Positions 52,941 through 63,569 of a DNA stretch of 64,000 bases are shown here, one piece after another. The notes beneath the pieces are model-generated. The model ran no database searches, was not told the DNA's origin, and was given only the letters and a program-made list of their open reading frames with translations. Both the position numbers and the translations under genes were made by a program. The DNA is taken from assembly GCF_005937985.2 (NCBI RefSeq), contig NZ_CP042172.1, forward strand, positions 186,001 through 250,000. The letters run 5' to 3'. This DNA comes from Arthrobacter sp. KBS0702. GTDB taxonomy: Bacteria; Actinomycetota; Actinomycetes; Actinomycetales; Micrococcaceae. Within the stretch, counting starts at the first letter, position 1; each line of letters starts with the position of its first letter.

Positions 52941-53591
52941 CTAGCCGCTGCCGAAGCCGACGCCGAAAGCGGTGCCGTACACGGTTCCCGGCAGCAGCGA
53001 CTGGGGCGGCAGCGGGCGCTCGGGCCGCTCGGCGCGGATGGCGTCTTCGAGCAGCGCGACCGGGCGGCGCCAGGCGTCCGAGCCGGCCTCCATGGTGTCC
53101 ACCACACCGATCAGCATGGCCAGCAGCCGGATCATGTCGGTCATCGAGATGTCGCTGCGCAGCGTGCCCTGGCCCTGGCCGCGGCCCAACAGCACGGCCA
53201 CCGACTCGATCAGGTCCCCGGTGATCCCGGTAAGCACACCGCGGCGGCCGGCCACCGCGCCGAGGAGGTTGGCTTCGTCGCTGGCCACCCCCATCAGTGC
53301 GTCGACCACGCGGAACAGGCCTTCCGTTGCGTCTTGGCCGGCCAGGGCCTCTTCGATGACCGGGTTGACCCGCAGTTTCAGCTGCTGGTGCAGGGCTGCG
53401 AGGACCAGCTCCTCTTTGTCGGCGAAGTTCCGGAACAGGGTTGCGGGGCCAACCCCGGCGGTGACCGCGATGGTCTGCAGCGGGACTTCGGGGCCGTGCT
53501 CGCGGAAGCATTGGCGGGCCGCGGCAATGATCTTATTCACGTTGCGCGCGGCGTCCGCGCGCAACGGCCTGCGGTCTACTCCCCGGTTCAT
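52941..53591 (-). CDS. TetR/AcrR family transcriptional regulator
   Basis: 216-residue TetR-type repressor. The helix-turn-helix spans about residues 14-60: RNVNKIIAAARQCFREHGPE then IAVTAGVGPATLFRNFADKEEL. The C-terminal ligand domain (about 80-200) is the SCO4008-type with DALMGVASDEANLLGAVAGR. ATG 53591 has a TACCCT box 6 nt upstream. Its target is unclear: a thiamine-binding protein gene diverges from it and a DUF1232 gene follows it. Confidence 0.88.
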   Translation of the reverse strand: MNRGVDRRPLRADAARNVNKIIAAARQCFREHGPEVPLQTIAVTAGVGPATLFRNFADKEELVLAALHQQLKLRVNPVIEEALAGQDATEGLFRVVDALMGVASDEANLLGAVAGRRGVLTGITGDLIESVAVLLGRGQGQGTLRSDISMTDMIRLLAMLIGVVDTMEAGSDAWRRPVALLEDAIRAERPERPLPPQSLLPGTVYGTAFGVGFGSG

Positions 53592-54136: not shown

Positions 54137-54829
54137 ATGATCGAGCACCAGCCCACGTCCCGCTGGATCGCCGTCGAGGAGTACCTCTCCGGCGTCGTGG
54201 TCCGGCCCGATCAATCGCTGCGGCACGCGGTGGAAGCCGCCCTTGAGGCGGGGATGCCGCCCATCGAGGTCGCCCCGAACGCCGGCAAACTGCTTAAGCT
54301 GCTGGTCCGGCTCTCCGGCGCCCGCCGGGTCCTGGAGATCGGCACCCTGGCCGGGTTCAGCACCATCTGGATGGCCCAGGGCCTGCCCGACGGTGGCCGG
54401 ATCGTCACCTGCGAATACCTCCCCCGGCACGCCGAGGTGGCCCGCGCGAACCTCGACCGGGCCGGCCTGGGTCACCTCGTGGACGTGCGGGTGGGCGCTG
54501 CCCTGGACACGCTGCGCGAACTGGAAACCGAGGATGCCGGGCCCTTCGACTTCGTGTTCATCGACGCGGACAAGGAAAACAACCCGCAATACCTGGACTG
54601 GGCCATCCGGCTGGGCCGGCCCGGCACCACGGTGGTGATGGACAACGTGGTCTGGGAGGGCGCGGTGCTGGAACCGGCACTGGACCCCGTCAACGCCCCG
54701 GGGATCGTCGCGGCCCTGCAGATGATGGGGGGGGACCCGCGGCTGGACGCCACCGTGATCCAGACGGTCGGGTCGAAGGGCTGGGACGGCTTCGCGCTCG
54801 CCCTCGTGAGAGATAGCGCTGCGAGATAG
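54137..54829 (+). CDS. O-methyltransferase (family 3, SAM-dependent)
   Basis: 230-residue class I methyltransferase of the catechol/caffeoyl-CoA OMT type. The SAM-binding motif is VLEIGTLAGFSTIWMAQGL (about 69-87), and the metal/active-site region is DFVFIDADKENNPQYLDWA (about 141-159); VMDNVVWEG is also conserved. Substrate unknown. AAGACT lies 6 nt before ATG. A run of eight G (54727-54734) sits in the coding sequence near the end (codons for Met-Met-Gly-Gly-Asp). Confidence 0.88.
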   Translation: MIEHQPTSRWIAVEEYLSGVVVRPDQSLRHAVEAALEAGMPPIEVAPNAGKLLKLLVRLSGARRVLEIGTLAGFSTIWMAQGLPDGGRIVTCEYLPRHAEVARANLDRAGLGHLVDVRVGAALDTLRELETEDAGPFDFVFIDADKENNPQYLDWAIRLGRPGTTVVMDNVVWEGAVLEPALDPVNAPGIVAALQMMGGDPRLDATVIQTVGSKGWDGFALALVRDSAAR

Positions 54830-54900: not shown

Positions 54901-54920
54901 ATGCTAAGTATGCTTAGATT
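54901..54920. promoter_or_regulatory. Palindromic operator candidate CTAAGTATGCTTAG
   Basis: CTAAG (54904-54908) and CTTAG (54913-54917) flank TATG, within AATGCTAAGTATGCT, which matches the element at 22453-22467 in 14 of 15 positions. It lies about 80 bp upstream of the acyl-CoA dehydrogenase operon, where transcription should begin. Confidence 0.45.
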
Positions 54921-54998: not shown

Positions 54999-56075
54999 AT
55001 GAACGCGACCCAGGAGACCCGCCCTCCCCGCGCCGTGCGGATCAGCTCCACCCCGGATGAACTTGCCGGGCTCGGGCCGCTGCTGGAAACCGCCGCTGCC
55101 GGCGTAGGGGACGTCCCGGCCCTGCTGGCCCTTGCCAAAGATCTGGGGGAGACGGCCCCCAAGCCCGGTTCCGGCCGGACCGCTCTCCTCTGGGAGATCC
55201 TCGCCTCGGTCACCGCCGTCGACGTCGCCGCCGGCCGGATCCTGGAACCGCACCTCGACGCCGCCGCCATCCTCGCCCAGGCAGCGGGGGCCGGGGGCAC
55301 GGTCCCGTTCGACGGGACGTGGGGAGTCTTCGCCGCCGAGGCGCCGGGGCTGAAGCTGGACGCCAAGGAGGCAGGCGGCGCCGTCGTCCTCCAGGGATCC
55401 AAGCCATGGTGTTCGATCGCCCCGCAGCTCGACCATGCCGTGCTGACAGCGCACCTTGACGGCGGCGGCCGCGCCGCCTTCGCCGTCGACCTGCACGCCG
55501 CCGGGGTCAGCTTCGCGGACCCGCACTGGACCAGCCGGGGCCTGCGCGAAATCCCCAGCGGCACCGTGCACTTCGACGCCGTCCCGGCCGTGCCGCTCGG
55601 CGGCACCGGCTGGTACTACCAGCGTCCCGGCTTCGCCTGGGGCGGCATGGGGGTCGCTGCCTGCTGGCTCGGCGGCGCCGTCGCCGTGGCCCGCAGCTAC
55701 GCGGACGCGCTCAGGACGGCGGCCGACGGCGGCCGCGAACCGGACCAGCTGGCCCTCGCGCACCTCGGCGAAATCGACCGCACGCTCTCCGGCCTCCTGC
55801 ACTACCTCGCCATGACCGCAGCCCGGATCGACGCCGGGGAACTCTCCGGACCCGGCGCATGGAGCGAGGCGCTGCGCGTCCGCGGCAGCGTGGCCGCCGC
55901 CGTCGACCGCATCCAGGCGCTGGTGGGCCAAAACCTCGGGCCCGGCCCGCTGGCTTTCGACGAACCCTACGCCAAACGCATAGCCGACCTCTCGCTCTAC
56001 GTCCGCCAGCACCACGCCATGCGCGACGACGCCCAACTCGGCGCCCTGACCTTCAAGGGGGACCACCCATGGTGA
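54999..56075 (+). CDS. Acyl-CoA dehydrogenase homologue
   Basis: 358 residues of the acyl-CoA dehydrogenase fold but shorter than most (about 380). It has the mid-domain signature KLDAKEAGGAVVLQGSKPWC and SFADPHWTSRGLREIPSGTV, where FAD-binding strands lie, and a C-terminal helical bundle. The usual catalytic Glu motif of short-chain enzymes is not clearly seen, so activity on acyl-CoA is not certain. An AAGGA lies about 13 nt before ATG 54999. The stop overlaps the next gene by 7 nt. It is the first gene of a coupled operon with a PIG-L/methyltransferase fusion and a glycosyltransferase. Confidence 0.78.
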   Translation: MNATQETRPPRAVRISSTPDELAGLGPLLETAAAGVGDVPALLALAKDLGETAPKPGSGRTALLWEILASVTAVDVAAGRILEPHLDAAAILAQAAGAGGTVPFDGTWGVFAAEAPGLKLDAKEAGGAVVLQGSKPWCSIAPQLDHAVLTAHLDGGGRAAFAVDLHAAGVSFADPHWTSRGLREIPSGTVHFDAVPAVPLGGTGWYYQRPGFAWGGMGVAACWLGGAVAVARSYADALRTAADGGREPDQLALAHLGEIDRTLSGLLHYLAMTAARIDAGELSGPGAWSEALRVRGSVAAAVDRIQALVGQNLGPGPLAFDEPYAKRIADLSLYVRQHHAMRDDAQLGALTFKGDHPW

Positions 56076-57448
56076 GCTTCACGCACAACGACGCCGGGAC
56101 GCCCGAGGCCGACTGGGCACGCAGCGGCGTGGCAACCCTGCCGGAACTGCCGCTGGACGCCGCGGAACTCGCCGCCACGGCGTTCATCGTCCTGGCCGCC
56201 CACCCCGACGACGAATCCCTGGGCGCCGGCGGACTGATGGCCCGGCTGCACGGGTTTGGCGCCGAGGTGCGGGTACTGCTGTGCACGGCCGGGGAGGCCT
56301 CGCACCCCGAGTCGCCCAGCACCACGCCCGAACGGCTGTCCGCCCTGCGGCTGCGGGAGTTCGACAGTGCGCTGGGCCGGCTCGTCCCGGACGCCGAGTG
56401 GCGGTACCTCGGGCTGCCGGACGGAAAGCTTTCCGGGCGACGGGAGCAGGTCCTGGCCGCCATCCGCGAGGCTGCGGCCGCGACCGGCCGGCCGGCGGAC
56501 CGGATCGTCCTCGTGGCGCCATACCGGCACGACGGCCACACCGACCACGACGCGCTGGGCGCAGCGGCGGCCGAGGCAGCCGCCTCAGCCGGGTACGGGC
56601 TGCTGGAGTACCCGGTCTGGTACTGGCTCTGGGCCGGCCCCGGGGACCCGGCCTGGCAGCCGTGGCTGCGGCTCCCGCTGACCCCGGCCGAGGAGCAGGC
56701 CAAGGCGCAGGCAATGGCGGCGCACACCTCGCAGGTCCGGGCACTGTCGGACCAACCGGGGGACGAAGTGCTGCTCCCGCCCGCGTTCCTGGAACACTTC
56801 TCCCGGCACTGGGAAACCTTCGCCTGGCGGGCGCCCGCTCCGGCCGCGGGCAACCGCCCGGGCTATGCCGCGGCCGACGCCGAGGGGCTCTTCGACGCCG
56901 TCCACGCCCGGGACGAGGACCCCTGGGACTACACCACCAGCTGGTATGAGCACCGCAAGCGCGCGCTCACGCTCGCGGCGCTGCCCGCCCGGAGTTTCAC
57001 CGCCGGGCTTGAGATCGGCTGCTCGATCGGCACCCTCAGCGTCGAACTCGCTGAACGGTGCCGGAGCTTCCTGGCCGTCGACGCGAGCAGCGCCGCCCTG
57101 GCGCACGCCGCCCGGCGGCTCGCGCACCTGCCCGACGCGCGGACCAGCCACCTCACTGTTCCGCAGGACTGGCCGGAGGGGGCCTTTGACCTGATCGTGG
57201 TGTCCGAGGTGGGCTACTACCTCTCGCCCGAGGAACTGGCCGCGCTGTTCGACCGGGTCGAAGATGCCCTGCTGCCCGGCGGCGTCCTGGCGCTTTGTCA
57301 CTGGCGGCACCCGATCGACGGCTGGGAACTCGACGGCGACACCGTCCACGCCGCGGCCCGCCGGCAGCTTCGCTGGGCCGACGCCGGCCTCTACCGGGAG
57401 CGCGACTTCGTGCTGGAAATCCTCCGCGCCCCGGAGCCGCTCCCGTGA
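56069..57448 (+). CDS. PIG-L deacetylase fused to a NodS-like SAM methyltransferase
   Basis: 459-residue bifunctional protein. Residues about 1-240 are a PIG-L-type zinc deacetylase (LAAHPDDESLGAGGLMARLH, with AHPDDE the metal and catalytic motif; HTDHDALG with the later His). Residues about 275-459 are a class I methyltransferase of the NodS type: WDYTTSWYEHRKRALTLAAL, then LEIGCSIGTLSVELAERC (SAM site) and VVSEVGYYLSPEEL. PIG-L enzymes remove acetyl from N-acetylglucosamine-like sugars; NodS methylates the resulting amine in Nod factors. Order deacetylation-methylation on one chain is therefore coherent, but the substrate is unknown. ATG 56069 overlaps the preceding gene by 7 nt. Confidence 0.85.
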   Translation: MVSFTHNDAGTPEADWARSGVATLPELPLDAAELAATAFIVLAAHPDDESLGAGGLMARLHGFGAEVRVLLCTAGEASHPESPSTTPERLSALRLREFDSALGRLVPDAEWRYLGLPDGKLSGRREQVLAAIREAAAATGRPADRIVLVAPYRHDGHTDHDALGAAAAEAAASAGYGLLEYPVWYWLWAGPGDPAWQPWLRLPLTPAEEQAKAQAMAAHTSQVRALSDQPGDEVLLPPAFLEHFSRHWETFAWRAPAPAAGNRPGYAAADAEGLFDAVHARDEDPWDYTTSWYEHRKRALTLAALPARSFTAGLEIGCSIGTLSVELAERCRSFLAVDASSAALAHAARRLAHLPDARTSHLTVPQDWPEGAFDLIVVSEVGYYLSPEELAALFDRVEDALLPGGVLALCHWRHPIDGWELDGDTVHAAARRQLRWADAGLYRERDFVLEILRAPEPLP

Positions 57449-58248
57449 GCGGTCCGTCCGCGGCGGCCAGGACCCCGTCGCGGCGGCCCGGCATCGACGC
57501 CGTCGCCGTGGTCATGCCTGCCCACAACGAGGACCAGCACATCGGGCGGGCGCTGCGGGCGGTGCAGCGCGCTGCCGACGAGCTGCAGCGCCAGCGGCCC
57601 GAGATCGCCGTTTGCGTCACGGTGGTTCTGGACAGCTGCACCGACAGCACCGCCGCGATCACCGCCGGATACGTCGACGCCGACCCGCGCTTCAGTGCAC
57701 TCGAGGTCCGGCTGCGCAGCGCCGGCGCGAGCCGGGCGGCGGGTGTCCGCAGCGCCGTGCTTGGCGGCCGTCGGGCCCCGGGTCAGCGTTCCGGGCCGGC
57801 GCCGTGGCCGGGCCGGACCTGGCTGGCCAACACCGATGCCGATTCCCAGGTTCCGGAGAACTGGCTGGTCCGGCAGCTCGAGTTCGCCGAGGCGGGCGCC
57901 GACGCGGTGCTGGGCTCGGTGGAACCGGACCCCGTGGGCATGGATCCGGAACTGCTGCGCCGCTGGCTGGAGCGCCACCCGTTCGAGGAGAACCACCCGC
58001 ACATCTACGGCGCCAACTTCGGCGTCCGGGCCTCCGCCTACCTGGCCGCCGGCGGCTTCTCCAAACAGGAATCGCATGAGGACCGCACGCTCGTCCAGGG
58101 CCTGCGCAGCCTCGCCTTCACCGTCCTCGCCACGGACAGCATGCGGGTGCTGACCTCCGGGCGGACCCAGTCGCGGGCGCCCCAGGGCTTCGGTGCGTAC
58201 CTGCGTTCGCTCGGCCGGCAGCGGCCGCCTGCCGCCACCGGCAACTGA
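57445..58248 (+). CDS. Family 2 glycosyltransferase
   Basis: 267-residue GT-A fold glycosyltransferase. The N-terminal VVMPAHNEDQHIGRAL (about 22-37), the donor motif WLANTDADSQVPENWL (about 128-143, with DAD as the metal-binding DxD), and NFGVRASAYLAAGGFSKQ are as in family GT2. There is no membrane segment. GTG 57445 overlaps the upstream stop by four bases. It is the last gene of the operon; the acceptor and donor sugars are unknown. It would build or extend the glycan that the PIG-L/NodS protein modifies. Confidence 0.87.
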   Translation: MSGPSAAARTPSRRPGIDAVAVVMPAHNEDQHIGRALRAVQRAADELQRQRPEIAVCVTVVLDSCTDSTAAITAGYVDADPRFSALEVRLRSAGASRAAGVRSAVLGGRRAPGQRSGPAPWPGRTWLANTDADSQVPENWLVRQLEFAEAGADAVLGSVEPDPVGMDPELLRRWLERHPFEENHPHIYGANFGVRASAYLAAGGFSKQESHEDRTLVQGLRSLAFTVLATDSMRVLTSGRTQSRAPQGFGAYLRSLGRQRPPAATGN

Positions 58249-58314: not shown

Positions 58315-58403
58315 ACCAGCGGCGCTGCGCCGGAGCATCCTCGGAGGCATGACGCACCTGGGCAGTGCCGGGGTTAGGTGCTGCGCATGACGGGCGGCGG
58401 AGG

Positions 58404-61019
58404 GTGAACCCCGCCGCGGCCGGGCCGCTGCCAGGAATTTCCGGACTGAGCTCGGCGGAGGCTGCCCTGCGTCTGGAGCGCGCCGGGCCGAACCGGCTGC
58501 CCGAGGTCCGGGCCGTGCCGGGATGGCGGCGGCTGCTGGCAGAGCTGAGCCACTTTTTTGCCATCATGCTCTGGGTGGCGGCCGTCCTCGCCTTCGTCGC
58601 CGGGATGCCGCAGTTGGGCGTCGCCATCGTCGTGGTTATCGTCGTTAACGGGGTCTTCGCCTACATCCAGCAGGAGCGCGCCCAGCACGCCGCCGCCAAA
58701 CTGCGCGAGCTGCTGCCCGCCATGGTCTCGGTCCGGCGGGACAACCGCATCGTCACGGTGCACGCCACCGAGCTGGTGCCCGGCGACGCCGTCGTGCTGG
58801 TTGCCGGAGACCGGGTGCCGGCGGACCTCCGGCTGGCGCTGGCCGCTGGCTGCACGGTGGACGAATCGATGCTCACCGGGGAGAGCGAAGCGGTGACGAA
58901 GGCCGCCGGCGACACCGTGTTCGGTGGAACCTTCCTGGTCATCGGCACGGCCGAAGGCGTGGTGGCCAGCACCGGGGGACAGACCAGGCTCGCCGAGATC
59001 GCGTCGCTGACCGGCAAGGTCGAGGCGCCGCCGAGCCCGCTGGCACTGGAACTGCAGCGGATTGTCCGGATTGTCGCCGGCGTGGCACTGGGCATCGGCG
59101 CCCTGTTCTTCATCCTCTCGCTGCTCGTAGGCATCTCCTGGCGCGATGCGTTCCTCTTCGCGATCGGCGTGGCAGTGGCGCTTGTGCCCGAGGGCCTGCT
59201 CCCCACCGTCACGCTCTCGCTCGCCATCGGCGCGCAGCGGATGGCTGCGCGCAACGCCCTGGTGCCCAACCTGCAGGCGGTCGAGACGCTCGGCTCCACC
59301 ACGTTCATCTGCACCGACAAGACGGGAACCCTCACGCAGAACCGGATGAACGCCGTCGAGGTCTGGACGCCGTCGGGGCTGCTGGGCATCACCGGTACGG
59401 GCTACGGGCCGGAAGCCCAGGTCTCCGGGGAAGGCGGCGCGGACGCCGGGGCGGCGGCTTTCCAGGCGGGGCAGCGGCTCAGCGCCGCCGCCCGTGCCGC
59501 CTCGGTGGGCCGGGCGGTGCCCCGCGACGGGCAGTGGATCGCCGAGGGCGACCCGATGGAAGCCGCCATCGACGCGCTCGCCACCCGGCTTGCCGGCCCC
59601 GGCGGCAGGGCGGAGAATCCGACGCCGTCGCACCGCTTTGCCTTCGATCCCCGCCGGCTGCGGGAGTCCGCCATCGTCGGCCCCACGCTCTTCGTCAAGG
59701 GTGCCCCGGAGTCCGTGATCCCCTTATGCGAGGACGGCGCCGACCGCGCCCTGCAGATGGTGGACCAGATGGCTTCGCGCGGGCTCAGGGTCCTTGCGGT
59801 CGCGCAGCGGAGCCTGCCGGGCCTGCCGGGCGCCCGCGTCAAGCCCGAGGACGTGGAGACCGGGTTGACGCTGCTGGGGCTGATCGGCCTGCACGATCCG
59901 CCCCGCGCGGAGGTGCGGCTCTCGCTGCAGGCGGCCCGCGAGGCCGGCATCAAGGTCGGCATGGTCACCGGCGACCATGCCTTCACGGCCGCCGCCATTG
60001 CCCGCGAAACCGGCCTGATCGGCTCCCCGGAGCTGGTGCTGGAGGGCCATACGCTGCCGGAAGACGATGAGGTCCTGGCCGCGCTGCTGGACCGCGACGG
60101 CGTCGTGGTCAGCCGGGTGACGCCGGAGCAAAAGCTCCGGGTGGCCCGGCTGCTGCAGCACCGCGGCCACGTGCTGGCCATGACCGGCGACGGCGTCAAC
60201 GACGGCCCTGCCCTGCAGCAGGCGGACATCGGCGTCGCCATGGGCCGCAGCGGCACGGACGTGGCCCGCGAGGCGGCGGACCTGGTGCTGCTCGACGACG
60301 ACTTCGCGACGATCATCGCGGCCGTGGAGCAAGGCCGCGCCACCTACGCGAACATCCGCCGCTTCCTGACCTACCACCTCACGGACAACGTCGCAGAGCT
60401 GACGCCGTTCGTGTTCTGGGCCCTGTCCGGCGGGCGGTTCCCGCTGGCGCTGAGCGTGCTTCAGATCCTGGCTCTGGACATCGGCACCGACCTGCTGCCG
60501 GCCCTGGCCCTCGGCAGCGAGGCACCCAGCAAGGGGGCACTGAAGCGGCCGCCGGAACGCCGGCACCTGATGGACCGCGCCCTGATGTTCCGGGTGTTCG
60601 GGCTGCTGGGCCCGGTGGAGGCCCTGATGGAAATGATCGCCTACACCGCCGTGCTCTTCGGCGCCGGGTGGAGCCCCGGGGCGGAACTGCCGCCGTCGGA
60701 TGTGCTGATGGCCGCCTCGGGCGCCGCATTCACCACCGTGGTCCTGGGCCAGCTCGCCAACGCCTTCGCCTGCCGCAGCGCCACCGCCCCGCCCTGGCGG
60801 CTGGGCTGGCTCACCAACCGCCTGCTGCTCTGGGCCGTGCTGGCTGAGCTGGGCCTGCTGGCGGTCTTCCTGTTCCTCGGCCCACTCGCGGCGCTGCTGG
60901 GCCATGCCCCGCCGACTCCCGGGGGGCTGGCCGTGGCCCTCGCCGCGATTCCCGCCGTCCTGCTCGCCGATTCGCTCTACAAGGCGGCCAGGCACCGCGG
61001 GCTGGCCCGCGCCGCCTAG
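58404..61019 (+). CDS. Cation-transporting P-type ATPase, type IIC-like
   Basis: About 871 residues, 10 membrane segments. Motifs in order: MLTGESEAV, PEGLLPTVTLSLA (helix 4), D305 in CTDKTGTLTQNRM (phosphorylated Asp), VKGAPE, GMVTGDHAFTA, and MTGDGVNDGPAL. Helix 5 has DNVAELTPFVFW and helix 6 LALDIGTDLLPALALG, which resemble the Na+/K+- and H+/K+-ATPases (type IIC) more than Ca2+ pumps. The start is uncertain: GTG 58404 and GTG 58365 are both possible, and neither has a well-spaced Shine-Dalgarno. Ion specificity is unknown. It is followed 126 bp later by PEP synthase. Confidence 0.88.
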   Translation: MNPAAAGPLPGISGLSSAEAALRLERAGPNRLPEVRAVPGWRRLLAELSHFFAIMLWVAAVLAFVAGMPQLGVAIVVVIVVNGVFAYIQQERAQHAAAKLRELLPAMVSVRRDNRIVTVHATELVPGDAVVLVAGDRVPADLRLALAAGCTVDESMLTGESEAVTKAAGDTVFGGTFLVIGTAEGVVASTGGQTRLAEIASLTGKVEAPPSPLALELQRIVRIVAGVALGIGALFFILSLLVGISWRDAFLFAIGVAVALVPEGLLPTVTLSLAIGAQRMAARNALVPNLQAVETLGSTTFICTDKTGTLTQNRMNAVEVWTPSGLLGITGTGYGPEAQVSGEGGADAGAAAFQAGQRLSAAARAASVGRAVPRDGQWIAEGDPMEAAIDALATRLAGPGGRAENPTPSHRFAFDPRRLRESAIVGPTLFVKGAPESVIPLCEDGADRALQMVDQMASRGLRVLAVAQRSLPGLPGARVKPEDVETGLTLLGLIGLHDPPRAEVRLSLQAAREAGIKVGMVTGDHAFTAAAIARETGLIGSPELVLEGHTLPEDDEVLAALLDRDGVVVSRVTPEQKLRVARLLQHRGHVLAMTGDGVNDGPALQQADIGVAMGRSGTDVAREAADLVLLDDDFATIIAAVEQGRATYANIRRFLTYHLTDNVAELTPFVFWALSGGRFPLALSVLQILALDIGTDLLPALALGSEAPSKGALKRPPERRHLMDRALMFRVFGLLGPVEALMEMIAYTAVLFGAGWSPGAELPPSDVLMAASGAAFTTVVLGQLANAFACRSATAPPWRLGWLTNRLLLWAVLAELGLLAVFLFLGPLAALLGHAPPTPGGLAVALAAIPAVLLADSLYKAARHRGLARAA

Positions 61020-61145: not shown

Positions 61146-63569
61146 ATGCCCGAACATGTGCTGTGGTTTGAAGAGATCGGCATGGGCGACGTTCCCCAGG
61201 TCGGCGGCAAGAACGCCTCCCTGGGCGAACTCATCCAGTCCCTCAAGGCCCGGGGCGTGCGGGTCCCCGACGGCTTCGCCACCACCGCCGCGGCTTACCG
61301 GACGTTCATCGCGGCGAACGGGATGGAACCGGCGATGCGCTCGCGGATCCTGGCCTACCGTTCCGGCGACGCCACGCTGCGCGAAACCGGGGAGGCCATC
61401 CGGGAACTCTTCCTGGCCAGCGATTTCCCGGAGGACATCGCCGAGTCCATCCGCTCGCATTACCGGGACCTGGGCATGCGCGCCGGGCGGGAGCGGCTCT
61501 CCGTCGCCGTCCGCAGCAGCGCCACGGCCGAGGACCTGCCCGACGCCAGCTTCGCCGGCCAGCAGGAAACCTTCCTCAACGTCGCCGGCGACCGGGAACT
61601 CATGGACGCCTGCCGTCGCTGCTACGCCTCGCTGTTCACCGACCGGGCCATCAGCTACCGGGAGGTCAAGGGCTTCGACCACCTCGACGTCGCGCTCTCG
61701 ATCGGCGTGCAGCGGATGGTCCGCTCCGACGTCGGCGCCTCCGGGGTGATGTTCTCCATCGACACGGATTCCGGTTTCCCGCGGGCGGCCGTGATCAGCG
61801 CCGCCTGGGGCCTCGGCGAGACCGTGGTCCAGGGCAGCATCAACCCGGACAAATACCTGGTGTTCAAACCGCTCCTGGGCGACGCCGCAGCGGCCGAGGA
61901 ACCGGCGGAGGGGCCCACGGAGGGCATCAGCCCGATCATCGAAAAGACCCTCGGCTCCAAGGCACAGAAGATGGTCTACAGCCGCGGCGGCCACGCCCGC
62001 ACCCGGACGGTGGACACCTCCGACGCCGAACGCCGCGCCTTCGTGCTGGCCGACGCCGAGATCCTGACCCTGGCGCGCTGGGCCGTGACCGTCGAGGAGC
62101 ACTACGGCCGGCCGATGGACATGGAATGGGCCCGGGACGGCGAGACCGGCGAGCTCTTTATGGTCCAGGCCCGGCCCGAGACCGTGCAGTCACTCAAGAC
62201 CGGCTCCCGCTTCACCCTGCACCACCTGCTCGAAACAGGGGCTGTCCTGGCGACCGGGGCGGCGATCGGTGACTCGATCGCGCAGGGGACGGCCTGCGTG
62301 ATCCGGAGCGCCGCGGACATCGAGAGGTTCCGCGACGGCGCCATCCTCGTCACGGAAATGACCGACCCGGACTGGGTTCCCATCATGAAGCGCGCGGCCG
62401 GGATCGTCACGGACCATGGCGGTCCCACTAGCCACGCGGCGATCGTGAGCCGGGAACTAGGGGTCCCCGCCGTCGTCGGGACCGGCAACGCCACCGGGGT
62501 GCTGGCCGAGGGACTGGCCGTGACGTTGTCCTGTGCCGAAGGCGACCAGGGCCGCGTGTACGCCGGCACGCTCGCGTTCGAAACCGAGGAAGTGGACCTG
62601 GGCGAACTGCCGGCGACGCACACCAAGGTCATGGTCAACATCGCCAGCCCCGCGGCAGCCTTCCAGTGGTGGCGGCTGCCCGCGGACGGCGTCGGGCTGG
62701 CCCGGATGGAGTTCATCATCAGCGCCCTGATCCGGGTCCATCCGATGGCGCTGGTCCATCCGGAACGGGTCACGGATCCGCAGGAGGCCGCGCAGATCAG
62801 GGAACTGACCCGCGGCTACGCCGACCCCCGGGACTACTTTGTGGACGAGCTGGCGCTGGGCATCGCGAAGATCGCCGCGCCCTACCACCCGAACCCGGTG
62901 ATTGTGCGGCTCAGCGACTTCAAGACCAACGAGTACGCGCACCTGGTGGGTGGTTCAGCCTTCGAGGAGGCCGAGGAAAACCCCATGCTCGGTTTCCGCG
63001 GCGCCTCGCGCTACTACGACGAACGGTACCGGGACGGCTTCGCGCTCGAATGCCGGGCCCTGAAGCGGGTCCGGGAACGGATCGGCTTCGGCAACATCAT
63101 CGTGATGGTCCCGTTCTGCCGCACCCCGCAGGAAGCGGACAAGGTGCTGGCCGTGATGGCGGAGAACGGCCTGGTCCGCGGCGAGCACGGCCTGCAGGTC
63201 TACATGATGTGCGAAATCCCCTCCAATGTGGTCCTGGCCGAAAAGTTCGCCACCCGCTTCGACGGTTTCTCGATCGGCTCGAACGACCTCACCCAGCTGG
63301 TCCTGGGCGTGGACCGCGACTCTGCGCAACTGGCGGCGCTGTTCGACGAGCGCGACGAGGCCGTCATGGCGATGATCAGCGAGGCGATCCGCCAAGCGCA
63401 CGCGGCCGGGATAAAGATCGGCATCTGCGGCCAGGGGCCCAGCAACCACCCGGAGTTCGCGGCGTTCCTGGTCGGCGAGGGCATCGATTCCATCTCGCTG
63501 AACCCGGACAGCTACCTCAGGACCGTCCCGCGGATCGCGGAAGCCGAGAAGCTGGCGGCTTCCCGGTAG
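61146..63569 (+). CDS. ppsA: Phosphoenolpyruvate synthase
   Basis: 807-residue enzyme making PEP from pyruvate and ATP (AMP and phosphate released), for gluconeogenesis or energy balance. The ATP-grasp N-terminus has VAVRSSATAEDLPDASFAGQ; the phosphohistidine is H430 in GGPTSHAAIVSRE; the C-terminal PEP domain has IGSNDLTQLVLGVDRD and catalytic C761 in IGICGQGPSN. Length and motifs fit PpsA. ATG 61146 follows GAGGAG by 8 nt. Upstream, AGAGGTCCAAAGCCTCT forms an inverted repeat but is a weak match to DevR boxes. It converges with, and overlaps by 53 bp, the P-type ATPase gene that follows. Confidence 0.95.
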   Translation: MPEHVLWFEEIGMGDVPQVGGKNASLGELIQSLKARGVRVPDGFATTAAAYRTFIAANGMEPAMRSRILAYRSGDATLRETGEAIRELFLASDFPEDIAESIRSHYRDLGMRAGRERLSVAVRSSATAEDLPDASFAGQQETFLNVAGDRELMDACRRCYASLFTDRAISYREVKGFDHLDVALSIGVQRMVRSDVGASGVMFSIDTDSGFPRAAVISAAWGLGETVVQGSINPDKYLVFKPLLGDAAAAEEPAEGPTEGISPIIEKTLGSKAQKMVYSRGGHARTRTVDTSDAERRAFVLADAEILTLARWAVTVEEHYGRPMDMEWARDGETGELFMVQARPETVQSLKTGSRFTLHHLLETGAVLATGAAIGDSIAQGTACVIRSAADIERFRDGAILVTEMTDPDWVPIMKRAAGIVTDHGGPTSHAAIVSRELGVPAVVGTGNATGVLAEGLAVTLSCAEGDQGRVYAGTLAFETEEVDLGELPATHTKVMVNIASPAAAFQWWRLPADGVGLARMEFIISALIRVHPMALVHPERVTDPQEAAQIRELTRGYADPRDYFVDELALGIAKIAAPYHPNPVIVRLSDFKTNEYAHLVGGSAFEEAEENPMLGFRGASRYYDERYRDGFALECRALKRVRERIGFGNIIVMVPFCRTPQEADKVLAVMAENGLVRGEHGLQVYMMCEIPSNVVLAEKFATRFDGFSIGSNDLTQLVLGVDRDSAQLAALFDERDEAVMAMISEAIRQAHAAGIKIGICGQGPSNHPEFAAFLVGEGIDSISLNPDSYLRTVPRIAEAEKLAASR

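What the first reader, a model, noticed from the sequence alone, without database searches (positions are those of the whole stretch)
54999..58248. Operon of acyl-CoA dehydrogenase homologue, fused PIG-L/NodS protein and GT2 glycosyltransferase
Three genes are coupled by 7- and 4-base overlaps and lie behind a palindromic operator. One chain carries both a PIG-L-type deacetylase (AHPDDE) and a NodS-like methyltransferase, followed by a GT2 enzyme. By function this matches the deacetylate-then-N-methylate logic of Nod factor biosynthesis, but with an acyl-CoA dehydrogenase homologue instead of NodA/NodC, and in an actinobacterium. The product, perhaps an amino-sugar glycolipid or N-methylated glycan, is unknown to me. 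This is the best candidate for an undescribed pathway in the window.
Basis: partly seen in the sequence, partly recalled or inferred. Interest (0 to 1): 0.75.

Follow-up and report, generated by a model that had tools for sequence, protein, structure and literature searches.

The report
Stress-linked N-methyl amino-sugar operon
A small set of enzyme genes found together across very different bacteria, often beside stress-protection genes, probably makes an unknown sugar molecule by the same two steps (strip an acetyl group, add a methyl group) that root-nodule bacteria use in their plant signals.

Summary
In detail: three overlapping genes (54999-58248) encode an acyl-CoA-dehydrogenase-fold (ACAD-like) flavoprotein, a PIG-L deacetylase/NodS-like methyltransferase fusion and a soluble GT2 enzyme, behind a palindrome conserved in close relatives. 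The genes are colinear in 75 of 80 actinobacterial loci; the four functions recur, unfused and in varied order, in several proteobacteria. PIG-L metal residues are invariant in 25 of 25 fusions. New here: of 19 phylum-sample genomes with the ACAD-like gene, 11 have a NodB-type (CE4) deacetylase beside the module and no PIG-L there, 7 have PIG-L, 1 neither, none both. This swap argues for deacetylation of an N-acyl sugar, then probably N-methylation. The ACAD-like protein lacks the dehydrogenase catalytic glutamate. Neighbours include catalase, trehalose and Dps genes; in published A. baumannii RNA-seq an operon with the same four products fell 31-62-fold with otsA, otsB and catalase. Ten searches of the open library found no paper assigning a function. 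Substrate, product and chemistry are inferred, not shown.

The parts
54903..54918 (+). conserved palindromic element GCTAAGTATGCTTAGA upstream of the operon; in relatives with dps it lies in front of dps
54999..56075 (+). ACAD-fold flavoprotein-like gene (358 aa); motif DLSLYVRQHH where dehydrogenases have (Y/F)EG(T/S)
56004..56009 (+). Arg336-Gln337 of the ACAD-like protein; the Gln is present in 65 of 65 module rows at the EGT site
   Evidence: also 94, 97
56069..57448 (+). fusion gene: PIG-L deacetylase + NodS-like SAM methyltransferase (459 aa)
56189..56578 (+). PIG-L (PF02585) domain, residues 41-170
56201..56215 (+). HPDDE metal/catalytic motif (residues 45-49), invariant in 25 of 25
56537..56548 (+). 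HTDH motif (residues 157-160): His157, Asp159 and His160 invariant in 25 of 25
56915..57421 (+). NodS-like methyltransferase domain, residues 283-451; nearest solved structure 4isc (Pseudomonas syringae)
57445..58248 (+). soluble GT2 glycosyltransferase (267 aa, GTG start)
57835..57843 (+). DxD (Asp131-Ala-Asp133) of the GT2, invariant in the 4 aligned

Best explanation
The operon is one branch of a widespread four-function biosynthetic module that makes a small, soluble, N-methylated amino-sugar glycoside used in stress or stationary-phase protection. Proposed order: the GT2 transfers an N-acetylhexosamine (probably GlcNAc from UDP-GlcNAc) to an unknown acceptor; the PIG-L domain (or, in other bacteria, a NodB-type CE4 enzyme) removes the acetyl group; the NodS-like domain, fused here to the deacetylase, methylates the freed amine; the ACAD-fold flavoprotein carries out a redox step on the product, more likely oxygenation or oxidation than acyl-CoA desaturation. 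Shown here: co-localisation, conserved motifs, deacetylase exchange, absence of the dehydrogenase Glu, lack of membrane stretches, stress-gene context. Inferred: donor, acceptor, order of steps, N- rather than O-methylation, the redox chemistry and the physiological role.
For: Colinear in 75 of 80 actinobacterial loci; of the 5 misses, 2 end at the contig edge. In the 36 more distant loci ACAD-like, fusion and GT2 genes recur in 36, 34 and 32, the next commonest neighbour family in 7. In 198 genomes of the phylum, all 19 with a methyltransferase match at E <= 1e-37 have the ACAD-like gene within 822 bases; 2 further genomes have the ACAD-like gene at that strength without it (cut-off set after seeing the tables, next matches 2e-23 and 3e-20). 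Gene order varies between lineages. NodB-type deacetylase in place of PIG-L in 11 genomes; for the Rubrobacter one the best NCBIfam model is NodB TIGR04243, and for its methyltransferase NodS NF041650, both under the equivalog cut-offs. PIG-L metal residues invariant. Glu absent. Catalase or trehalose genes in the stretch in 7 of 10 plasmid records against 0 of 10 control stretches of the same records (Fisher p 0.003; category chosen after reading the module stretches). Dps-like gene directly upstream in 13 loci (one of them checked, Ferritin family). A. baumannii RNA-seq: operon with the same four products down 31-62-fold with otsA, otsB and catalase (PMC5660220, section 8 read in full).
Against: No substrate, product or phenotype is known. 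NodS-like methyltransferases resemble many O- and C-methyltransferases, and scores are far under the NodS equivalog cut-off (56.4 against 300 bits). Some clusters lack a part: L107 and G002 keep only the ACAD-like gene, L137 lacks PIG-L and GT2, G132 lacks the methyltransferase and GT2, G175 has no deacetylase found nearby, Roseomonas has no GT2 annotated nearby, the Methylobacterium plasmid has only the ACAD-like gene. Two weaker methyltransferase matches of the phylum sample (G147, G211) have no adjacent ACAD-like gene. A close relative (G018) has two in-frame stops in the PIG-L part. Sphingomonas, Roseomonas and Pandoraea stretches have no catalase or trehalose gene; the Roseomonas control stretch holds two ergothioneine genes, another stress metabolite. 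Stress genes may cluster on plasmids anyway. Ten of the 11 NodB-type genomes are one family (f28), so the exchange may be one or two events.
Confidence: 0.6

Rival explanations
1. The ACAD-like protein is a true acyl-CoA (or acyl-ACP) dehydrogenase and the operon makes an amino-sugar glycolipid.
Against: At the EGT site of dehydrogenases the module reads RQH or similar: 2 of 65 module rows have Glu in that column, against 11 of 13 ACAD-family proteins of the same genome (misread four of the 13, which lie on the minus strand). No Glu at the second possible base position either (Gly in 54, Asp in 11 of 65; the place of that second position is recalled). PF00441 does not hit the window protein. 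None of the window's four scanned proteins is an acyltransferase or ACP.
Confidence: 0.12
2. The ACAD-like protein is a group D flavin monooxygenase that N-oxygenates the (N-methyl)amino sugar, like the nitrososynthases KijD3, ORF36 and DnmZ.
For: KijD3, nitrososynthase and DszC/TdsC are among the best sequence and fold matches; the Rubrobacter version's only NCBIfam hits are DszC and SfnB, far under cut-off; NodB-type clusters carry a ferredoxin-NAD reductase-like gene in 10 of 11, and Embleya has one downstream. Of the own-genome ACAD-family proteins, the type-2-like L177 also lacks the Glu.
Against: Dehydrogenases match the fold equally well (rows tied) and 2dvl, named acyl-CoA dehydrogenase, is the top sequence match. 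The reductase-like gene could serve another protein; it was not seen by tblastn in the 8 other phylum-sample clusters.
Confidence: 0.3
3. The methyltransferase acts on oxygen or carbon, not on the freed amine, so the Nod-factor parallel is only in names.
For: Scores to NodS are moderate; the domain also matches general methyltransferase families.
Against: NodS structures rank directly after 4isc in the fold search; NodS is the best NCBIfam model in both cluster types; fusion to the deacetylase in 76 of 80 loci suggests hand-over of its product.
Confidence: 0.25
4. The genes are part of a cell-envelope polysaccharide or signal (LCO-like) export pathway.
For: GT2 models for exopolysaccharide enzymes match weakly (EpsD); some clusters have extra glycosyltransferases (Novosphingobium) and the Rubrobacter one a large hydrophobic protein after the GT2.
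Against: The examined GT2s (window, Rubrobacter, Acinetobacter), the window's other two proteins and the Rubrobacter NodB-like protein have no membrane stretch. In the 36 distant loci no further gene recurs in more than 7; those families were not all identified, and one of them looks like an ABC-transporter ATPase (from reading), so a transporter is not excluded.
Confidence: 0.1

Closest known systems
Nod factor (lipo-chitooligosaccharide) pathway, NodB-NodS part, of rhizobia
   Same: de-N-acetylation of a GlcNAc unit followed by N-methylation (recalled for Nod factors); NodS-family methyltransferase; in Rubrobacter-type clusters also a NodB-family CE4 deacetylase
   Different: no NodA-type hit among the four scanned window proteins, GT2 is short and soluble (NodC is a membrane enzyme: recalled), PIG-L in most lineages seen, extra ACAD-fold flavoprotein, stress-gene context; scores far under the Nod equivalog cut-offs
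PIG-L/LmbE deacetylases of thiol cofactors (MshB, BshB) and LnmX
   Same: PIG-L fold with intact HPDDE and HxDH; small-molecule sugar deacetylation (recalled for MshB/BshB)
   Different: under all equivalog cut-offs; fused to a methyltransferase
Nitrososynthases / group D flavin monooxygenases (KijD3, DnmZ, DszC)
   Same: ACAD fold; lack of the dehydrogenase Glu (recalled for this group); amino-sugar substrate in KijD3 (title of 4kcf)
   Different: about 20% identity; fold search cannot separate them from dehydrogenases
A. baumannii ACICU_02432-02435 operon
   Same: same four products in the same order (PMC5660220 Table 2; a like gene string beside blsA in PMC6240043, one passage read); a 3.97-Mb A. 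baumannii record filed as a plasmid carries the four genes colinear
   Different: unfused in that record; no function assigned in the parts of the two papers I read; the ACICU sequences themselves were not compared
4isc, Pseudomonas syringae putative methyltransferase
   Same: closest solved structure to the methyltransferase domain, 43% identity
   Different: single domain; its entry title names no function beyond methyltransferase

Membership tests
PIG-L / LmbE deacetylase (PF02585) | Pfam gathering score | tested here: met
   84.6 bits against 28.2
PIG-L / LmbE deacetylase (PF02585) | metal and catalytic residues HPDDE and HxDH | tested here: met
   invariant in 25 of 25 aligned fusions; motif roles recalled
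NodS (PF05401 / NF041650) | Pfam gathering score | tested here: met
   45.9 bits against 24
NodS (PF05401 / NF041650) | NCBIfam equivalog cut-off | tested here: not met
   56.4 against 300 bits: related, not a NodS
NodS (PF05401 / NF041650) | N-methylation of a chitooligosaccharide amine | not testable with these tools
   needs an assay
Nod factor biosynthesis (NodABC) | NodC: processive membrane GT2 | tested here: not met
   267-aa GT2 without a membrane stretch; NodC's membrane nature recalled
Nod factor biosynthesis (NodABC) | NodA N-acyltransferase | tested here: inconclusive
   none of the four scanned window proteins hits it; the genome was not searched for it
Nod factor biosynthesis (NodABC) | NodB chitooligosaccharide deacetylase | tested here: not met
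   in this window the deacetylase is PIG-L; in the Rubrobacter cluster TIGR04243 is the best model but 113.4 against 240 bits
Acyl-CoA dehydrogenase | ACAD fold | tested here: met
Acyl-CoA dehydrogenase | catalytic Glu (EGT motif) or the alternative base | tested here: not met
   Glu in 2 of 65 module rows against 11 of 13 ACAD-family proteins of the genome; no Glu at the second position in 65
Group D flavin monooxygenase | sequence or fold nearer to this group than to dehydrogenases | tested here: inconclusive
   tied
GT2 glycosyltransferase (PF00535) | gathering score and DxD | tested here: met
   41.3 against 23.3 bits; TDAD invariant in 4 of 4
TIGR04283 arsenosugar glycosyltransferase | equivalog cut-off | tested here: not met
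   23.7 against 182 bits
MshB / Mca / BshB1 / BshB2 | equivalog cut-offs | tested here: not met
   all far under cut-off

The most novel reading that the evidence does not exclude
Many bacteria make an unrecognised N-methylated, N-oxygenated (hydroxylamine or nitrone) amino-sugar glycoside as a stress protectant alongside catalase, Dps and trehalose. The deacetylation step was recruited independently from the PIG-L and the NodB (CE4) families. The NodB/NodS decoration of rhizobial Nod factors is a symbiotic offshoot of this older, non-symbiotic chemistry.
Probability: 0.1. Interest if true: 0.92.

Novelty: new variant of a known kind. Interest (0 to 1): 0.66.

Why it matters
A conserved gene set present in soil actinobacteria, Acinetobacter, other proteobacteria and Rubrobacteria has no assigned product that I could find. 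The exchange of two unrelated deacetylase families narrows the missing substrate to an N-acyl sugar and makes the pathway directly testable. If the product is a stress metabolite, it would explain an operon that responds strongly in published A. baumannii data and would give the NodB/NodS chemistry a role outside symbiosis.

Tried and rejected
Chance neighbourhood: rejected by 75 of 80 colinear loci and varied order elsewhere. O-methyltransferase gene upstream (54137-54829) as a fifth member: rejected; it and other upstream genes recur only in the closer group as local synteny (35 of 81 loci counting the window, 0 of the 36 distant ones). Palindrome as a genome-wide regulon motif: not supported in this genome and 38 others. 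Fold comparison to separate dehydrogenase from monooxygenase: no separation. Lost metal site in PIG-L: rejected. Search for a replacement deacetylase in L188, L137 and L196: none in the nine ORFs scanned, so these stay exceptions. Literature: ten searches of the held library led to no paper that assigns a function. Only three papers were opened: PMC5660220 (section 8 and passages), PMC6240043 (one passage) and PMC10653896 (passages, not clearly about this module); the others listed were seen as listings only. Most subscription papers are not held, so this is weak evidence of absence. Rfam and PADLOC were not searched. A correction made while checking: I read four of the 13 own-genome ACAD hits in the wrong strand; one search repeats the alignment with all 13 read correctly and the result became clearer (11 of 13 with Glu).
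Full report
WHAT IS THERE. The window is bases 186001-250000 of a single 3.65-Mb contig; close protein matches carry Arthrobacter names. Three + strand genes overlap by 7 and 4 bases: an ACAD-fold protein gene, a PIG-L/NodS-like fusion and a GT2 gene. A palindrome, GCTAAGTATGCTTAGA (54903-54918), ends 80 bases before the first gene.

CONSERVATION. In 39 genomes (own genome plus relatives) the ACAD-like protein is found in 25: 21 of the 25 of the own genus, counting the own genome, and 4 of 14 others (one of them weak, E 1e-4). In 75 of these 80, ACAD, PIG-L, methyltransferase and GT2 are colinear within 5 kb, and PIG-L and methyltransferase share one frame in 76. Exceptions: L072 and L132 (contig ends), L107 (ACAD-like gene alone), L118 (GT2 in front, the two domains in separate frames), L137 (no PIG-L or GT2 found). 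These 80 were chosen by similarity to the ACAD-like protein and 44 (L064-L107) are close relatives, so they are not independent. In the 36 more distant loci the three genes recur in 36, 34 and 32; the next commonest neighbour family recurs in 7. A less biased test is the even sample of 198 genomes of the phylum: 19 have a methyltransferase match with E at or below 1e-37, 21 have an ACAD-like match of that strength, all 19 are within the 21, and in all 19 the two genes lie no more than 822 bases apart. The two without it are G002 and G132. I set that cut-off after seeing the tables; the next matches are at 2e-23 and 3e-20. At the search's own limit (1e-12) there are 21 and 46 genomes, and the two extra methyltransferase genomes (G147, G211) have no adjacent ACAD-like match.

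OUTSIDE ACTINOBACTERIA. tblastn with the Acinetobacter ACAD-like protein against 72,556 plasmid records matched 46 records. Of 16 stretches looked at in detail (L004-L008, L144-L153, L208), 14 hold all four functions by annotation or tblastn: Acinetobacter (two), Kitasatospora, Streptomyces, Embleya, Cupriavidus (PIG-L on the other strand, about 3 kb away), Comamonas, Legionella lytica, Sulfitobacter, Novosphingobium, Rubrobacter (with a NodB-type enzyme), Sphingomonas, Paracoccus and Pandoraea. Roseomonas has no GT2 annotated nearby and Methylobacterium has the ACAD-like gene only. PIG-L and methyltransferase are separate genes in these records, so the fusion looks like a derived actinobacterial form.

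ORDER AND EXCHANGE. Gene order differs: ACAD-PIGL-MT-GT2 (window), GT2-PIGL-ACAD-MT (L186), GT2-MT-PIGL-ACAD (L190), ACAD-MT-PIGL-GT2 (L184), GT2-ACAD-PIGL-MT (L194), PIGL-MT-GT2-ACAD (Legionella). A set that stays together through such shuffling is probably held together by function. Nineteen phylum-sample genomes were searched for deacetylases (18 of the 19 above, without the own genome, plus G132). In 11 no PIG-L is near the module; instead a CE4 polysaccharide deacetylase (PF01522) stands directly upstream of ACAD-MT. Seven have PIG-L adjacent, G175 has neither, none has both. The CE4-type clusters read NodB-like, ACAD-like, NodS-like, ferredoxin-NAD reductase-like, GT2 in 9 of 11; the other two are cut by contig ends (in L179 and L193 some of these matches are split between frames). 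For the Rubrobacter indicoceani plasmid (the same sequence as G112) the best NCBIfam models are NodB (TIGR04243, 113.4 of 240 bits) and NodS (NF041650, 74.6 of 300 bits). Its NodB-like protein has no membrane or signal-like stretch. Two unrelated deacetylase families filling one slot is the strongest argument that the slot is de-N-acetylation of an N-acyl sugar. Ten of the eleven belong to one family in the tool's numbering (f28), so this may be one or two evolutionary events, not eleven.

CONTEXT. In 10 annotated plasmid records (Acinetobacter, Cupriavidus, Sulfitobacter, Novosphingobium, Paracoccus, Comamonas, Legionella, Sphingomonas, Roseomonas, Pandoraea) a catalase or trehalose-synthesis gene lies in the stretch around the module in 7, against 0 of 10 control stretches of like length elsewhere on the same plasmids (Fisher p 0.003). 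The category was chosen after reading the module stretches, and one control stretch holds ergothioneine genes, so this is suggestive only. In Comamonas the module lies between otsA and otsB. In 13 actinobacterial loci a dps-like gene lies 14-190 bases upstream on the same strand, and in all 13 the palindrome (10 with at most 1 mismatch, 3 with 3) lies in front of dps, that is, in front of the first gene (one dps-like protein checked, PF00210). YihY/BrkB-like genes lie downstream in 24 loci (one checked). In A. baumannii, ACICU_02432-02435 (glycosyltransferase, SAM-dependent methyltransferase, LmbE, acyl-CoA dehydrogenase-related), marked as one operon, fell 31- to 62-fold in two colistin-dependent mutants, together with otsA, otsB, catalase and many hypothetical genes (PMC5660220, section 8 read). 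I did not compare the ACICU sequences themselves; another A. baumannii record carries the four genes colinear. The mutants have outer-membrane lipid defects (passages), so this shows co-regulation, not role. PMC6240043 (one passage read) mentions a like gene string beside blsA without a function.

MECHANISM. The most economical reading: GT2 builds an N-acetylhexosaminyl glycoside, the deacetylase frees the amine, the NodS-like domain methylates it (the fusion may hand it over), and the flavoprotein oxidises or oxygenates the product. The reductase-like gene in CE4-type clusters would fit an electron supply. Steps could also run on the nucleotide sugar before transfer. Nothing here fixes the sugar, the acceptor or the methylated atom.

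COMPARISON AND NOVELTY. It works like the NodB-NodS part of Nod factor synthesis but is not a member: cut-offs for NodS and NodB are not met, the GT2 is not NodC-like in being soluble, and an extra flavoprotein is present. The protein names already exist in databases and the operon appears in published tables, so the genes are known; the module as a conserved pathway, the deacetylase exchange, the missing glutamate and the palindrome footprint were not found described in the ten paper searches made. I rate it a new variant of a known kind.

Noticed in passing
L041 (G018), PIG-L part of the fusion: A close relative has two in-frame stop codons in the PIG-L part of the fusion while the ACAD-like and GT2 frames are open, so the pathway seems to be decaying there.
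   Followed up: partly
L061 (G002) and L107: Two Arthrobacter-clade genomes keep only the ACAD-like gene of the module in the stretch held.
   Followed up: partly
L179-L193, CE4-type clusters: A ferredoxin-NAD reductase-like gene lies between the NodS-like and GT2 genes in CE4-type clusters, and a similar one lies downstream of the Embleya module (L008 8546-9781).
   Followed up: partly
G166 contig C22, 36227-37509: A second NodS-like methyltransferase next to a second NodB-like deacetylase, on another contig than that genome's main module.
   Followed up: no
L150 9557-11194: Large hydrophobic protein without a Pfam hit directly after the Rubrobacter GT2, not matched by tblastn in the related clusters.
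   Followed up: no
window 58365-61019: Cation-transporting P-type ATPase-like ORF (name from reading the sequence) directly downstream of the operon; its family recurs in 8 loci counting the window.
   Followed up: no
window 61146-63569: Phosphoenolpyruvate synthase-like ORF; assignment from reading the sequence only.
   Followed up: no
window 52941-53564 (- strand): TetR-type regulator-like ORF (name from reading the sequence) kept upstream of the operon in 35 loci counting the window; a candidate binder of the palindrome, but this genome has no second exact copy of it.
   Followed up: partly
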